Positions 4,402 to 54,402 of a stretch of DNA of 64,000 nt are shown piece by piece. Numbering within the stretch: position 1 is the stretch's first letter; each line of letters opens with the position of its first letter. The notes under the pieces were generated by a model. The model saw only the letters and a list, made by a program, of their open reading frames with translations. It was not told the DNA's origin and ran no database searches. Source of the stretch: Methylomonas aurea (GTDB lineage Bacteria > Pseudomonadota > Gammaproteobacteria > Methylococcales > Methylomonadaceae). The position numbers and the translations under genes are program-made. The DNA lies in NCBI RefSeq assembly GCF_024505045.1, contig NZ_JANIBM010000008.1:124001-188000 (forward strand). The letters are read 5' to 3'.

Positions 4402-4488
4402 GCCGAGGTGGTGAAATTGGTAGACGCGCTAGCTTCAGGTGCTAGTGGGGGTAACCCCGTGGAGGTTCAAGTCCTCTCCTCGGCACCA
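4402..4488 (+). tRNA. tRNA-Leu (anticodon CAG)
   Basis: An 87-nt class II tRNA. The acceptor arms GCCGAGG (4402-4408) and CCTCGGC (4478-4484) pair fully, followed by discriminator A and an encoded CCA (4486-4488). The anticodon stem-loop is CTAGC-TTCAGGT-GCTAG, giving anticodon CAG for CUG codons. The long variable arm (GGGGGTAACCCC region) and the TTCAAGT T-loop fit leucine tRNAs. Confidence 0.95.
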
Positions 4489-8402: not shown

Positions 8403-8489
8403 GCCGGGGTGGTGAAACTGGTAGACGCGCCGGATTCAAAATCCGGTTCCCGCGAGGGAGTGTCGGTTCGATTCCGACCCTCGGTACCA
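8403..8489 (+). tRNA. tRNA-Leu (anticodon CAA)
   Basis: An 87-nt class II tRNA. Acceptor arms GCCGGGG (8403-8409) and CCTCGGT (8479-8485) pair with two G-U wobbles. Discriminator A and encoded CCA (8487-8489) follow. The anticodon stem-loop CCGGA-TTCAAAA-TCCGG gives anticodon CAA for UUG codons. A small hairpin CTACTC-ATTCA-GAGTAG (8491-8507) directly follows and may mark the trailer for processing. Confidence 0.95.
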
Positions 8490-49533: not shown

Positions 49534-50309
49534 GTATCCACCCAAAATAGCCGGTCCGGATTATGTTGGCCTTTTCCGGGCAGGTAGGCTGCAGCCAGGG
49601 ATTGCCAGGTAAATTCCTGAGCTTCGCTGACGGCGGTGAACATGTCCAGGCCTTGGGCTAGCAACGCGGCAATCGTGCTAGCCAGCGTGCAGCCGGAGCC
49701 GTGGTAGTGGTGGGGCAGGCGTTCCCAATTGAAGGTTTGGTTGAGGGCGTCGGGCATGTATAAACGGTTGTGTACCAGCTCGGAGTTTTCGTGGGTGCCG
49801 GTGATTAGCACGTACTCGGCTCCGCGTTGTTGCAGCCAGTGTGCGCAATCGGCCAGATCGGTTTGACCGGAGAGGCGGCGGGCTTCATTGCTGTTGGGTG
49901 TGAGTAAGGTAGTGAGCGGCAGTAGTTCGGAGACGATTACGTCTATCAACTGCCGGCCGGCCAACTCGGTGCCGCCGCCGGCAGCCAGCACCGGGTCCAG
50001 TACCACCGGAACGGTCGGATATTGCCGCAATACCAGGGCAATCGCTCTGGCGATTTCGGCGTCGCCGATCAGGCCTATTTTGCACGCGGCAACTTCGAAG
50101 TCGTTTAACAGGGTTTCAGCTTGGCTGACAATATCCTCCGGACGCTGCGGAATCAGCTTTTTGACGTTGCGGCTGTCTTGTTCGGTCAACGCCGTGACGA
50201 TGCTGGCGGCGTGGCAGCGGTGGCTGGCGATGGCCTCGATATCGGCTTGAATCCCGGCGCCGCCGCTGGGGTCGTGGCCGGAAAAACACAATACGATCGG
50301 CCGGCTCAT
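49530..50309 (-). CDS. thiD: Hydroxymethylpyrimidine (phosphate) kinase
   Basis: 259 residues. GHDPSGGAGIQADIEAI is the ribokinase-fold HMP-binding start, VLDPVLAAGGGTEL and TLLTPNSNEARRLSG follow, and HHYHGSGCTLASTIAA is the catalytic anion hole region. It phosphorylates HMP and HMP-P for thiamine synthesis. It overlaps the ligA stop upstream and thiE downstream. No TPP riboswitch is visible; the genes sit inside an operon. Confidence 0.94.
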   Translation of the reverse strand: MSRPIVLCFSGHDPSGGAGIQADIEAIASHRCHAASIVTALTEQDSRNVKKLIPQRPEDIVSQAETLLNDFEVAACKIGLIGDAEIARAIALVLRQYPTVPVVLDPVLAAGGGTELAGRQLIDVIVSELLPLTTLLTPNSNEARRLSGQTDLADCAHWLQQRGAEYVLITGTHENSELVHNRLYMPDALNQTFNWERLPHHYHGSGCTLASTIAALLAQGLDMFTAVSEAQEFTWQSLAAAYLPGKGQHNPDRLFWVDT

Positions 50310-52261
50310 GCTGTGTCTCCATTCAGCAAGGCCAGAAATTCCTGCTCGCTGAGTACCGTGACGCCTTTTTCGCGGGCGGCGTTGGTTTTGTTGGCGCCGA
50401 CATTGTCGCCGGCCACCAAATAGTCGGTCTTGGCCGAAACCGAGCTGCCGACTTTGGCGCCCTTGGCTTTGGCTTGCTTGCTGAGTTCGTCGCGGCTGCC
50501 GCTGTGCAAAGTGCCGGTAAATACCAGGGTTTTGCCGGCCAACGGGTGCGCGTTTTCGTCGGGTTGCGCCTGACTGGCCTGTAAGTTAAATCCCAGTGCC
50601 ATTAAATTATCGAACAAGGGTTTGATATTGGCGAAGCCTTCGGTAATCACGGCGGCAGTCTTTTCGGCAAAGCCTTCGATCGCGACGATATCGGCTTCGC
50701 TCAGTTCGAAGATCGCTGGTAGCGGATAGTGGGCCAGCAAACGTTCGCAATTGCCCAAACCCATGCGGAACACGCCGAACGCGGCCAGGAAGCGCCAGTC
50801 TTCGACCGCTTCGCGCCGGCTGCGCAACAACTGGTCGACCAGATTTTGCGATTGTTTCGGGCCGAAGCCCATGTTTTCGAATTGCTCGGCGTTGAGGGCA
50901 TAGATTTGGTCGACGCGGCGGATACCGTGTTCGTACAGGCGTTTGATGCTGGCGGCGCCGAAACCGTCGTTGTTTTTCAATACCCTGAAGAAATGCTCCA
51001 TGCTGTTGCTGATTTGCGCCGGACACGCCAGGTTGTTCGGGCAGAGCAGGTAGTCGTTATCCCAAATCAAAGCGTGGCCGCAACTGGGGCAGGCCTCGGG
51101 GATGTCGGGTTCGGCCGGGCGGATGACGGCCTCTATTTTCGGAATTACCTCGCCGGAGCGCGCCAAGCGGATTAGCGCGCCGGGTCCTATGCCCTTGTCC
51201 AGCACCATTTTGTAATGGTGGGCCGTCGCCCGCGACAGCAGCGCACCGCTGAGTCGGGTCGGCTCCAGCTCGGCGACCGGTGTAATCCGGCCCGAGCGCG
51301 AGGTTTGCGGCACGATATGCAGAATTCTGACTTCGGCGGTTTCCAGGTTTTCCTTGTACGCCAACTGCCAGCGGTGGTGGTGGCGGGTGGCGCCTAAGTA
51401 AGTTTTCAATTCCTCGTCGGCGATTTCCAGAATCACGCCGTCGACATCGTAGTCGACTTTATGCCAGATGGTTTTGACGTGGCTCTCGAAGTCGGCGATC
51501 AATTCGGCCCAGGAGCCCGTCCACGTTGGCAGCAATGCAAACGGATAAAATACCGCGGCATGGTCGTTGATGGCTTGTTGGGCGTGTTCGTCCAAATCTT
51601 TTTCCTTGATCACGCTGGCCTGAAAATTCCGCGGGTTGTCGAAAAAGTCGGCCAAGTTCCGATCGAAATAACTGCGGCTGACCACGATTTCGCCGGCGCC
51701 CAGGCCGCGCTGGCCTTGGTTGGCAACTTGCAGGCCTCTCTCGAACACGCGGCTGATGTCCTGGCCTTTACGGCCGTCGCCGCGGGTATACAGCATCCGG
51801 CCGTCGTCGTAGGCGGCGTAACCGTCCAGTTTTGGCGTGATTTTGAATTGCAGGTCGGCAAAGTTCTTGCCCAGTTCTTCCGCTGCTTTTTCGATGCGTG
51901 CCGCCCAGCGTTCGACTTCGTCGCGGCTGTAAGCCTTGTCGGTGGATAGCATCATCACCGGCAGGTCGACGGTTTTACCGGCGAAGGCCGGTTCCGGTTC
52001 CACTTCGTGTAACAACGGATGCTCGGGTTGGCGCTGTTTCAGTTCGGCCAGAAACACGAAATCGTAGTCGCTGTCGCTGATCGCCGGTTCGCCGCCGCGG
52101 TAGAGGGCGTTGGCGACTTTTAGAAAGGCGACCAGTTCGCCGTCAGCGGCGGAGTCGATTTGCTGCGGATGGCGGCACAGCTCGCAAAAGCGGTGTTCAC
52201 CGATGTCCTGCAACTCGACTCCGGCTTGGCGGAGCAGATGTTTTTGGTTGTCGCTGAGCAT
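50306..52261 (-). CDS. ligA: NAD-dependent DNA ligase, divergent LigA
   Basis: 651 residues. The adenylated lysine is K144 in KITPKLDGYAAYDDG, followed by YTRGDGRKGQDIS. Domain Ia reads LYRGGEPAISDSDYD, where the usual YH pair before the loop is YR. OB fold, a four-Cys zinc finger (CPSCGHAL...CPNNLACPAQ), helix-hairpin-helix repeats and a C-terminal BRCT (GKTLVFTGTLHSGSRDEL) complete it. It seals nicks using NAD+. The sequence departs from standard LigA through the first 140 residues, so the organism may also have a second, canonical ligase elsewhere. Confidence 0.9.
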   Translation of the reverse strand: MLSDNQKHLLRQAGVELQDIGEHRFCELCRHPQQIDSAADGELVAFLKVANALYRGGEPAISDSDYDFVFLAELKQRQPEHPLLHEVEPEPAFAGKTVDLPVMMLSTDKAYSRDEVERWAARIEKAAEELGKNFADLQFKITPKLDGYAAYDDGRMLYTRGDGRKGQDISRVFERGLQVANQGQRGLGAGEIVVSRSYFDRNLADFFDNPRNFQASVIKEKDLDEHAQQAINDHAAVFYPFALLPTWTGSWAELIADFESHVKTIWHKVDYDVDGVILEIADEELKTYLGATRHHHRWQLAYKENLETAEVRILHIVPQTSRSGRITPVAELEPTRLSGALLSRATAHHYKMVLDKGIGPGALIRLARSGEVIPKIEAVIRPAEPDIPEACPSCGHALIWDNDYLLCPNNLACPAQISNSMEHFFRVLKNNDGFGAASIKRLYEHGIRRVDQIYALNAEQFENMGFGPKQSQNLVDQLLRSRREAVEDWRFLAAFGVFRMGLGNCERLLAHYPLPAIFELSEADIVAIEGFAEKTAAVITEGFANIKPLFDNLMALGFNLQASQAQPDENAHPLAGKTLVFTGTLHSGSRDELSKQAKAKGAKVGSSVSAKTDYLVAGDNVGANKTNAAREKGVTVLSEQEFLALLNGDTA

Positions 52262-52293
52262 GCGGAGGGAATTCGGATTAGGATAGGCCGGCG

Positions 52294-52299
52294 ATTATA
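52294..52299 (-). promoter_or_regulatory. Probable -10 box of the ligA operon
   Basis: A perfect TATAAT on the minus strand, about 33 bp upstream of the ligA ATG and just beyond the zur/sRNA terminator. The -35 region overlaps the T-run of the terminator and is poor. Confidence 0.45.
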
Positions 52300-52314
52300 G
52301 GAGGATCGTCGGGC

Positions 52315-52347
52315 AAAAAAAAGGCGGGAGAGTTAAACTCGCCCGCC
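52315..52347 (-). terminator. Strong rho-independent terminator between zur and ligA
   Basis: Minus strand: GGCGGG-c-GAGT-TTA-ACTC-t-CCCGCC (52347-52323) followed by eight T (52322-52315). Ten paired bases with one mismatch, short loop, long T-run. It ends zur transcripts and any shorter transcript from the region. Confidence 0.9.
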
Positions 52348-52400
52348 GAGCATCTATCTTTCAAGAGGATCATGTCGACGGTAGGAAAGCGTTCGACATG
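52315..52400 (-). ncRNA. Candidate ~85-nt small RNA downstream of an FNR-type box
   Basis: A possible transcript from about 52400 to 52315 on the minus strand. The 5' end would form CATGTCGA (52400-52393) paired with TCGACATG (52378-52371) around a 14-nt loop containing CTTTCCTACC. Then comes a linker with ATCCTCTTG and the terminator hairpin. A -10-like TAAACT (52411-52406) and an FNR-type dyad centred about 41.5 bp upstream complete the picture. The pyrimidine-rich loop and linker could pair with Shine-Dalgarno sequences. Alternative: this is only the zur 3' UTR. Confidence 0.45.
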
Positions 52401-52430
52401 GCTCTAGTTTAGGACTTTAACGTTATTCAG

Positions 52431-52448
52431 CATTGACCTGGGTCAATG
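52431..52448 (-). promoter_or_regulatory. FNR/ANR-type palindrome over the zur stop codon
   Basis: CATTGACC-TG-GGTCAATG, a perfect 8-bp inverted repeat. The inner core TTGAC-N4-GTCAA has the spacing of FNR/ANR boxes (TTGAT-N4-ATCAA and variants with GTCAA). It includes the zur stop codon. If it activates transcription leftward the centre lies at about -41.5. Confidence 0.55.
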
Positions 52449-52964
52449 TTCGTCGTCTTTTTCCGACGCGGCAGTCGCAGCGGGTTTACAGGACTTGCAT
52501 AATCCGTGAATTTCGATGGTTTTACGTTGCGGGACGAAGCCGGCGCCGCTTAATTCCGTGCTTAGCGCGCTCAATACGTCCGGGGCGGCGCGTTCTTCGA
52601 CGGTATGGCAGGCGGTGCAGATCAGCAAGAGCTGGTCGTGCTGGGTGCCGGAGCAATGGCAGCCGACGAAAGCATTCAGGCTTTCCACCCGGTGAATCAG
52701 GCCTTGTTCCAGTAAAAAATCCAGTGCCCGGTACACGGTCGAGGGTTTGGCGGCATCGTTGACCGGACGGATTTGGTCGAGCAAATCGTAAGCTTTGACG
52801 GCCTTATGGCTGTTCCAGATCAACTCCAGGATTTTATGACGGATCGGCGTCAACTGCACGCCGCGTGACAAGCAAAGCTGTTCCGCTACACTTATCGCAT
52901 TTCGAATGCACTGGTTGTGGTCGTGTTCCGGGTGGCTGATACGTTCGGGTTCTGATTCGGTCAT
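52443..52964 (-). CDS. zur: Fur family zinc uptake regulator Zur
   Basis: 173 residues. The winged helix contains LTPIRHKILELIW, AYDLLDQIRP and KPSTVYRALDFLLEQGLIHR, which follows E. coli Zur more than Fur. Metal sites: CHCSGTQHD, CTACHTVEE and HGLCKSCKP (two CxxC pairs for structural zinc). It represses zinc-uptake genes when zinc is bound. N-terminal His-rich SHPEHDH and C-terminal DDEH tails add possible metal ligands. Single gene, ended by a strong terminator. Confidence 0.9.
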   Translation of the reverse strand: MTESEPERISHPEHDHNQCIRNAISVAEQLCLSRGVQLTPIRHKILELIWNSHKAVKAYDLLDQIRPVNDAAKPSTVYRALDFLLEQGLIHRVESLNAFVGCHCSGTQHDQLLLICTACHTVEERAAPDVLSALSTELSGAGFVPQRKTIEIHGLCKSCKPAATAASEKDDEH

Positions 52965-53163
52965 TTGCGGGAAGGGTGATAAGGTTCATTCATTTGGCTG
53001 TCCGGCTTGTTTATAGTGCCAGCATCAACAGGCCATTTCAATTCATATCGAAGTTGTCTGCTGCTATGATGGTGTGGTGGCCGTTTGGGCGCCATAGTAT
53101 GGTTGTTGGATACATGGCCGGTGAGGGGCGCGGCGTGGTGGCAAGTATTTTTTGAGGCAATTG

Positions 53164-54402
53164 ATGAGAAGGATTACGTTCCTGGTTTATGCGATGTTAT
53201 GGCTAATGTTGCTTGGCCTGAACCTATACCAGCAAGTAATGGATACCAAACAGTACGCGCAAAATATCGCCACCCGCCAGGCTGAAATGTTTTTCGATCA
53301 CATTTTGCTGGTCAGAAAATGGAATGCTTCGCACGGCGGCGTCTATGTGCCGATCGATGCCGCTACTCAGCCCAATCCGTATCTGAAAGTACCGAACCGG
53401 GATCTGGAGACCAAGGAGGGGGTCAAACTAACCTTGATTAACCCGGCATTCATGACCCGGCAGTTGGCGGAAATGAGCAAAAGCCAAAGCGGGATCAATT
53501 TTCATATCACCAGCACCGAGCCGCTGCGGCCGGAAAACAAACCCGATAATTGGGAGGCTCAGGCTTTGGCCGCGTTTCAGAACGGTCTGAAAAGCGTCAG
53601 CGGTTCGGGCCTGATCGACGGCAAGCCTTTTTACCGTTATATGGCGCCGCTGCTGGTCGAACCGGCATGCTTGAAGTGCCACGATCAGGATGGCTATAAG
53701 TTGGGCGACGTCAGGGGCGGCGTCAGCGTCAATATACCCGCCGCGACGCTGGACAGTTTCGTCGACGAACGGGTCGACCATCTGGTCATCACCCATAGCA
53801 TCGTTGCGCTAATCGGTGTGATCGTGTTGTTACTGTCTTATCTGGCGCAGGCCCGGCTCAGCAAGCGCCTGGATAAGGCGCAGAGCCGCTTGCAACTGGC
53901 CTATCTGGATTCGCTGACGTTGTTGCCGAACCGGCGCTATTACGACGCCTTCGTCAAACGCGAATGGAAGCGGGCCTTACGGCACCAGTACCCGTTGTCG
54001 ATGATCATGATCGACATCGATTTTTTTAAATCCTACAACGACAATCTGGGCCATTTGGAAGGCGACCAGTGTCTGCGGCAAGTGGCGAGAACCTTGAAGC
54101 GGTTTTTCCGCCGGCCCGGCGATTTGATCGCCCGCTACGGCGGCGAGGAATTCTGCGTGGTGGCGGCTTGCGATGCCGAACAAATATTAGTGTTGGCGGA
54201 GATATTGCGCAAGGCGGTCGAGAATATGCGCATGCCGCATCCGGATTCGAAGATTTCCGAGTTCGTCACGATCAGCCTCGGCGTGGCGACCATCATTCCC
54301 GGCCACGATCAAGCTTTCGACGGTTTGTTGTATCGTGCCGACCAAGCCCTGTACGACGCCAAGGCCTCGGGCAGGAACCGGGTCGGACGTTATCGGGAAT
54401 AA
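53164..54402 (+). CDS. Diguanylate cyclase with periplasmic c-type haem (Tll0287/DUF3365-like) sensor
   Basis: 412 residues from the ATG at 53164, six bases after GAGG; the TTG at 53152 would put that Shine-Dalgarno inside the gene. TM1 is at residues 3-20. The periplasmic domain contains EPACLKCHDQDGYKLGDVRG, with a CxxCH haem-c motif near residue 169. TM2 is near 205-225. The GGDEF domain has DSLTLLPNRRYY, IDIDFFKSYND and RYGGEEF, with an RPGD inhibitory site just before it. It should make c-di-GMP in response to redox, gas or ligand at the haem. Confidence 0.9.
   Translation: MRRITFLVYAMLWLMLLGLNLYQQVMDTKQYAQNIATRQAEMFFDHILLVRKWNASHGGVYVPIDAATQPNPYLKVPNRDLETKEGVKLTLINPAFMTRQLAEMSKSQSGINFHITSTEPLRPENKPDNWEAQALAAFQNGLKSVSGSGLIDGKPFYRYMAPLLVEPACLKCHDQDGYKLGDVRGGVSVNIPAATLDSFVDERVDHLVITHSIVALIGVIVLLLSYLAQARLSKRLDKAQSRLQLAYLDSLTLLPNRRYYDAFVKREWKRALRHQYPLSMIMIDIDFFKSYNDNLGHLEGDQCLRQVARTLKRFFRRPGDLIARYGGEEFCVVAACDAEQILVLAEILRKAVENMRMPHPDSKISEFVTISLGVATIIPGHDQAFDGLLYRADQALYDAKASGRNRVGRYRE

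What the first reader, a model, noticed from the sequence alone, without database searches (positions are those of the whole stretch)
52315..52448. Candidate FNR/ANR-activated small RNA between zur and ligA
Seen: a perfect TTGAC-N4-GTCAA dyad (in 52431-52448) over the zur stop; a TAAACT hexamer at 52411-52406 (minus); a perfect 8-bp hairpin CATGTCGA/TCGACATG; a strong terminator with eight T at 52315. Known: FNR-family activators bind such boxes and work best centred at -41.5; small RNAs such as enterobacterial FnrS are FNR-controlled. Inferred: with the centre at -41.5 the start falls at about 52398, right at the hairpin, giving an ~85-nt RNA with two stems and a pyrimidine-rich loop (CTTTCCTACC) and linker (ATCCTC) able to pair with ribosome binding sites. 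ligA has its own TATAAT beyond the terminator.
Basis: partly seen in the sequence, partly recalled or inferred. Interest (0 to 1): 0.8.

Follow-up and report, generated by a model that had tools for sequence, protein, structure and literature searches.

The report
Low-oxygen-switched small RNA in methanotrophs
Between two genes of a methane-eating bacterium (Methylomonas) lies a conserved gene for an RNA of about 85 letters, with its own predicted switch for the low-oxygen regulator FNR; its design resembles known low-oxygen RNAs of other bacteria but its sequence is new, and its expression and targets are still untested.

Summary
An RNA-like element from about 52401 to the terminator is found in 36 of 37 genomes of the window's genus, and at another chromosomal place in 5 of 6 genomes of a second genus, g15. 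All 41 loci carry a perfect TTGAY-N4-RTCAA box centred about 41.5 bp before the predicted start, and a TANNNT -10 hexamer. The unit stays when zur (3 loci) or ligA (1 locus) is missing beside it. Hairpin 1 has some compensatory changes. The unpaired linker ATCCTCTTGAAAGATA is the most conserved part. The genome encodes an FNR with the Fe-S cysteine pattern and ExxSR helix, and Hfq. Rfam has no convincing match; outside the order none was found in the 365 genomes of the class sampled. Best reading: an FNR-activated, trans-acting sRNA, probably Hfq-assisted, that works like FnrS of E. coli or Neisseria but forms a new sequence family. Linker complementarity kept in 15 of 15 orthologues marks one candidate target; nifH and a Bcp peroxiredoxin are weaker. 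No expression data were available.

The parts
52433..52446 (-). FNR box TTGACCCAGGTCAA, centre about 41.5 bp upstream of the predicted start; core of an 18-bp perfect dyad 52431-52448; overlaps the zur stop codon
   Evidence: same box class at the same distance in 41 of 41 loci, 31 of 31 distinct sequences
52406..52411 (-). -10 hexamer TAAACT (TANNNT in relatives)
52315..52399 (-). predicted ~85-nt small RNA, starting at A52399 or T52398 and ending in the T run
   Evidence: 16 of 36 matches begin exactly at 52401 (query position 60); fold z -3.97 (52400-52315); models R1, R2
52371..52400 (-). 5' hairpin CATGTCGA..TCGACATG
   Evidence: pairs with changes on both sides
52355..52370 (-). unpaired linker ATCCTCTTGAAAGATA, most conserved stretch, probable seed
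52315..52347 (-). intrinsic terminator, stem GGCGGGCGAG..CTCTCCCGCC and eight T
   Evidence: alignments
52443..52964 (-). zur-like Fur-family regulator gene upstream
   Evidence: PF01475
50306..52261 (-). ligA (NAD-dependent DNA ligase) downstream; own TATAAT at 52299-52294

Best explanation
The segment is an independent gene for an ~85-nt regulatory RNA. Low oxygen restores the Fe-S cluster of FNR; the dimer binds the box at about -41.5 and recruits RNA polymerase at a -10-only (class II) promoter; transcription starts at about 52399 and stops at the T run. The RNA (5' hairpin, open linker UCCUCUUGAAAGAU, terminator with U tail) would be held by Hfq and pair through the linker with purine-rich ribosome-binding sites such as UCAAGAGGA, blocking translation of proteins not wanted without oxygen. 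Shown by sequence: gene architecture, conservation, some compensatory changes, presence of FNR and Hfq genes. Inferred: transcription, FNR binding, Hfq binding, targets and the sign of regulation.
For: 36 of 37 same-genus genomes, 16 of the 36 matches starting exactly at 52401; the one miss, G023, is 83% complete in 480 contigs. Box + -10 + spacing in 41 of 41 loci; in 35 distinct windows the eight half-site bases are 100% conserved against a mean of 0.53 over 40 bases upstream and 0.49 over 16 bases downstream, though single neighbouring columns reach 0.80-0.91. Non-syntenic copies with the same promoter in 5 of 6 g15 genomes. In the genus the unit persists without zur within about 1.45 kb in 3 loci and without ligA within 1.6 kb in 1. 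Compensatory pairs in hairpin 1. Of three CRP-family proteins over the cut-off, one is FNR-type, with C-x2-C-x5-C, a further Cys and ETVSR. Hfq present. Perfect 11-nt linker complement over the ribosome-binding site in 15 of 15 orthologues of one protein, 64-100% identical.
Against: No RNA data. Covariation is modest: 2 of 6 pairs with changes on both sides; of 500 shuffles, 68 reach that number, 493 the number of pair types and 4 the covariation score, and related sequences alone can give the last. The candidate target protein exists in only 15 of 37 genomes. Partners as good or better are found in 1059 start regions by linkers shuffled around UCCUCUU, so the target list is weak. The Bcp site is in only 13 of 30 orthologue loci. 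Three weaker CRP-type hits in the genome were not read.
Confidence: 0.82

Rival explanations
1. It is only the 3' untranslated tail and terminator of zur, with no promoter of its own (or an RNA cut from zur mRNA).
For: The zur end lies within 300 bases upstream in 32 of 36 same-genus loci, and in the window the box overlaps the zur stop.
Against: Three loci with full flank (L019, L027, L030) have no zur match upstream but keep the unit before ligA; the distance from zur match end to box varies from 0 to 216 bases while box-to-hairpin distance is fixed; g15 has the unit elsewhere, with box and -10.
Confidence: 0.06
2. Real small RNA, but the box is served by another CRP/FNR-family protein, so the signal is not oxygen through FNR.
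For: Two further CRP-family proteins lie over the Pfam cut-off and three weaker hits were not read; the window's half-site TTGAC is not the E. coli consensus TTGAT (recalled).
Against: The two others over the cut-off lack the N-terminal cysteine cluster and carry CRP-like SREM helices; relatives show plain TTGAT..ATCAA at the same place.
Confidence: 0.08
3. A leader or attenuator of ligA.
For: ligA starts within 450 bases downstream in 31 of 36 same-genus loci (four of the other five have flanks of 318-342 bases).
Against: A TATAAT-like hexamer follows the terminator in most rows of the alignment; in L021 no ligA match lies within 1.6 kb but the unit is kept, and none of 5 g15 loci has ligA in the stretch held.
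Confidence: 0.02
4. A leaderless message for a nine-residue peptide (MSNAFLPST), alone or as a second function (not exclusive of the best explanation).
For: The predicted RNA begins with AUG; 21 of 36 same-genus loci keep a 9-codon frame [MV]SxxFLPxT.
Against: Frame broken, different or not found in the other 15 of 36 and different in 5 of 5 g15 loci; changes include first and second codon positions; the gonococcal FnrS, which also starts AUG, gave no activity in a leaderless translational fusion (PMC3032703, passages).
Confidence: 0.04

Closest known systems
Neisseria FnrS (AniS)
   Same: FNR class II site, 5' stem-loop, unstructured middle, 3' terminator, transcript starting AUG (N. gonorrhoeae, PMC3032703, passages; the name AniS for the meningococcal one is recalled)
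   Different: Other locus and organism; sequences not aligned here
Enterobacterial FnrS (Rfam RF01796, accession recalled)
   Same: FNR class II promoter at -41.5 (PMC3032703, passages); represses functions dispensable without oxygen (PMC8139620, passages), which is the role proposed here
   Different: Not among Rfam matches; PMC3032703 states that no homologue outside Enterobacteriaceae had been observed
Pseudomonas aeruginosa SicX (PA1414)
   Same: Small RNA induced at low oxygen through an upstream Anr box; short seed pairs with a 5' UTR (PMC10247376, passages)
   Different: No homologues reported outside P. aeruginosa; activates ubiUVT; Hfq made no difference in the test reported

Membership tests
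FNR-activated trans-acting small RNA (general kind) | FNR-type box centred near -41.5 with a -10 hexamer | tested here: met
   41 of 41 loci; by sequence geometry, start not mapped
FNR-activated trans-acting small RNA (general kind) | Compact RNA with stem-loop and intrinsic terminator, independent of an ORF | tested here: met
   short frame not kept; unit independent of zur and ligA
FNR-activated trans-acting small RNA (general kind) | Host encodes oxygen-sensing FNR | tested here: met
   L176 ORF 1036-1743, cysteines and ETVSR helix; residue roles recalled
FNR-activated trans-acting small RNA (general kind) | Expression induced by low oxygen and dependent on fnr | not testable with these tools
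   no RNA data
FNR-activated trans-acting small RNA (general kind) | Base pairing with target mRNAs | tested here: inconclusive
   one conserved site, 15 of 15 orthologues; no enrichment over shuffled linkers
Enterobacterial FnrS (RF01796) | Match to the Rfam covariance model | tested here: not met
   not among matches at gathering nor among the 7 up to E 10 on 52290-52470
Neisseria FnrS/AniS | Sequence homology or shared locus | not tested
   its letters were not fetched; only the architecture was compared
Hfq-dependent small RNA | Hfq binding | not testable with these tools
   Hfq gene present; U tail present

The most novel reading that the evidence does not exclude
An oxygen-to-nitrogen and oxidative-defence RNA circuit of aerobic methanotrophs: FNR switches on this RNA when oxygen runs out, and its invariant linker shuts down messages with a UCAAGAGGA ribosome-binding site, among them nifH, a Bcp peroxiredoxin and the protein in the P450 operon. 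Other Methylococcales carry their own FNR-box RNAs at unrelated places with little alignable sequence (g15, possibly g47).
Probability: 0.15. Interest if true: 0.75.

Novelty: new member of a known kind. Interest (0 to 1): 0.55.

Why it matters
Methylomonas and its kin consume methane at the oxygen edge of lakes and soils (general knowledge), and a conserved FNR-driven RNA would be a post-transcriptional arm of their response to falling oxygen, in strains that can be grown and genetically altered. No methanotroph small RNA of this kind turned up in the searches made here (open-licence papers only, and only the top 15 and 10 rows).

Tried and rejected
Rfam matches below threshold (7 up to E 10, best L20 leader, E 0.12): the one shown for L20 leader scores mainly on the terminator; taken as chance. 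The zur loci of other genera read (L049-L057, L059), and L046 (a MAG titled Methylomonas), have no box or linker in the 420 bases after zur; that is absence at that place, not from the genome. G210 (E 0.003) has no box in the stretch read and is taken as chance. Of the pattern hits outside g1 and g15, those of G057 and one of two in G083 were read and do not look like the element; the second in G083, that in G191 and the extra one in G030 were not read. The control gave 1 match in 311 genomes. R2 at E 0.1 hit 97 of 311 genomes; apart from g1 and g15 the best was E 2e-4, and 19 of those weaker loci plus one weak g15 hit (G133) were read: 2 have an FNR box (g47), 10 are another g11 element, 8 look like chance. 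The pattern needs TCCTCTTT, so it could not match the Methylomonas form; it tests only the g15 form (0 of 369). Start-region ranking gave no clear regulon; the crude gene caller lost the P450-operon protein to an antisense ORF, so it was scored apart: 5, 17 and 30 of 1059 background regions score as low for three orthologues and 9 of 1059 for the other twelve. The conservation script anchors on the box; its 41 of 41 means that every locus found by the box-free models R1 and R2 passed. An earlier count gave the Bcp count as 14 and the control as 11; the tables show 13 of 30 and 10. Durand and Storz 2010 on FnrS is not held, so FnrS details come from two other papers and recall.

Full report
What is there. 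On the minus strand, between a Fur-family gene called zur (52443-52964; PF01475) and ligA (50306-52261), the sequence holds in order a perfect FNR-type dyad, a -10 hexamer, an 8-bp hairpin, an open linker and a strong terminator. The RNA segment folds to -29.1 kcal/mol, z -3.97, with 0 of 200 shuffles as stable. One copy of the box in one window would be weak evidence, and the general promoter and terminator scans did not list the unit.

Conservation in the genus. The 156-base query found a match in 36 of 37 genomes of the window's genus. Named records that carry the element include Methylomonas koyamae, M. methanica, M. fluvii and Methylomonas sp. LW13. The miss, G023, is 83% complete. In 16 of the 36 the match starts exactly at query position 60, that is 52401, the edge of the predicted RNA. 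An alignment of 31 distinct sequences shows the linker ATCCTCTTGAAAGATA almost unchanged while zur's last codons and the ligA leader drift. In 31 of 31 the box is a perfect TTGAY-N4-RTCAA, although many of these matches did not include it.

Independence from the neighbours. In 36 same-genus loci the zur end lies within 300 bases upstream in 32 and ligA starts within 450 bases downstream in 31; several of the loci without one or the other have short flanks. With full flank, three loci (L019, L027, L030) have no zur match within about 1.45 kb and one (L021) no ligA match within 1.6 kb, yet the unit is there. The gap from zur match end to box ranges from 0 to 216 bases. So the box is held in place by the RNA, not by zur.

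Second genus, other place. A covariance model of the RNA alone (R1) searched in 237 family genomes gave 40 with a match at E 0.01: 36 of the genus, three of g15 and G210, which looks like chance. With R2, 36 of 37 genus genomes and 5 of 6 g15 genomes score at E 1e-7 or better among 311 genomes of the order; in all 97 of 311 have some match at E 0.1, the rest weaker than 2e-4. R2 was built from these loci, so their scores are partly by construction; the independent point is the box, which is not in the model. The g15 copies follow a different conserved gene, have no zur or ligA in the stretches held, and have box, -10 and spacing in 5 of 5. In 369 genomes sampled from the class (4 of them in the order), only G000 itself matched R2 at E 1e-4. 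Plasmid records gave no match.

Promoter geometry. In 41 of 41 loci the box centre lies 38 or 39 bases before the CC of CCATG, and TANNNT starts 10 or 11 bases before it. Both place the start at the A or T of CCATG, 52399 or 52398, with the box at about -41.5. In 35 distinct genus windows the eight half-site bases are 100% conserved; the mean majority fraction is 0.53 over the 40 bases before and 0.49 over the 16 after, with a few columns just upstream at 0.80-0.91.

Structure. Six pairs of hairpin 1 form in 98.2% of cells; two pairs show changes on both sides. Against shuffles, 4 of 500 reach the covariation score, but 68 of 500 reach the number of such pairs and 493 of 500 the number of pair types, and relatedness alone can produce the first; covariation supports the hairpin without proving it. 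Sliding the partner strand by 1-3 columns drops pairing to 6-52%. With g15 added, three pairs have changes on both sides (101 of 500 shuffles reach this), on an alignment that is visibly imperfect for two g15 rows.

Regulator and chaperone. The genome has three CRP-family proteins over the Pfam cut-off and three weaker hits that were not read. One (L176, 235 aa) has CANCGLDNIC near its start, a further cysteine in ETMSFC and the helix LTRQEIGNHLGLALETVSRLL, which by recalled knowledge of E. coli FNR are the Fe-S ligands and the TTGAT-reading residues. The other two over the cut-off lack this cluster and helix. Hfq is present.

How it would act. The linker is the only long unpaired, nearly invariant part, so it is the likely seed; its complement is UAUCUUUCAAGAGGAU. 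TCAAGAGGA followed by ATG was searched in 12 genomes and 40 of the sites were read. nifH has the site in 5 of the 12 (nifH in the other 7 was not looked for). Bcp has it in 13 of 30 orthologue loci. A 445-aa protein without Pfam match, behind a cytochrome P450 gene, has ATAATAATTTCAAGAGGAC in 15 of 15 orthologues, even at 64% protein identity, while bases around it vary. That is an 11-base perfect complement over the ribosome-binding site. Against over-reading: TTTCAAGAGGA occurs 46 times in 15 genomes, 15 of them the RNA gene itself and 6 this protein, with 10 in the reversed control; in 1059 start regions from 1.2 Mb of G007, linkers shuffled around UCCUCUU find partners as good or better. 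Targets are therefore hypotheses.

Known kinds. FNR-driven small RNAs are known. E. coli FnrS has a class II site at -41.5 (PMC3032703, passages) and on overproduction represses more than 30 mRNAs of functions dispensable without oxygen (PMC8139620, passages). Gonococcal FnrS has the same plan and also starts AUG. SicX of P. aeruginosa is driven by Anr (PMC10247376, passages). This one works like them by architecture but does not match Rfam. Searches combining methanotroph or Methylomonas terms with small RNA terms found no report of it (listings only, apart from passages of PMC12607906, and PMC11072679). The library holds open-licence papers only.

Verdict. A genuine, conserved, so far undescribed (as far as searched) small RNA gene with an FNR-type promoter: a new family of a known kind. 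Probability that it is an independent FNR-controlled small RNA is about 0.82; the pairing mechanism is inferred and its targets are open.

Noticed in passing
L337, L338 (G302, G297, family f5, genus g47): A short C-rich RNA-like element with terminator (CCTCCTTCCTCG ... CCATTATCCTCTGGG) behind a perfect box TTGATGTAGATCAA; looks like another FNR-driven small RNA in another Methylococcales family.
   Followed up: partly
L328-L336, L346 (genus g11, 10 of the 20 stretches read): A different conserved short element with terminator, preceded by TGCGACAATATGTCACA, a palindrome recalling RegA/PrrA-type boxes (recalled), no FNR box: a second redox-type small RNA candidate.
   Followed up: partly
L252 1501-2838 and orthologues L253-L266: A 445-aa protein without Pfam match, downstream of a P450 gene, whose 5' region ATAATAATTTCAAGAGGAC is fully conserved in 15 of 15 orthologues.
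   Followed up: partly
L139 about 440 (G132): A second perfect FNR-type box lies between the small RNA and what looks like a tRNA-Ser gene (tRNA read by eye).
   Followed up: no
window 4402-4485 and 8403-8486, +: Two tRNA genes, the only Rfam matches at gathering score in the window.
   Followed up: no
window 53152-54402, +: An ORF that reads like a membrane sensor with a diguanylate cyclase domain, divergent from zur (named by eye).
   Followed up: no
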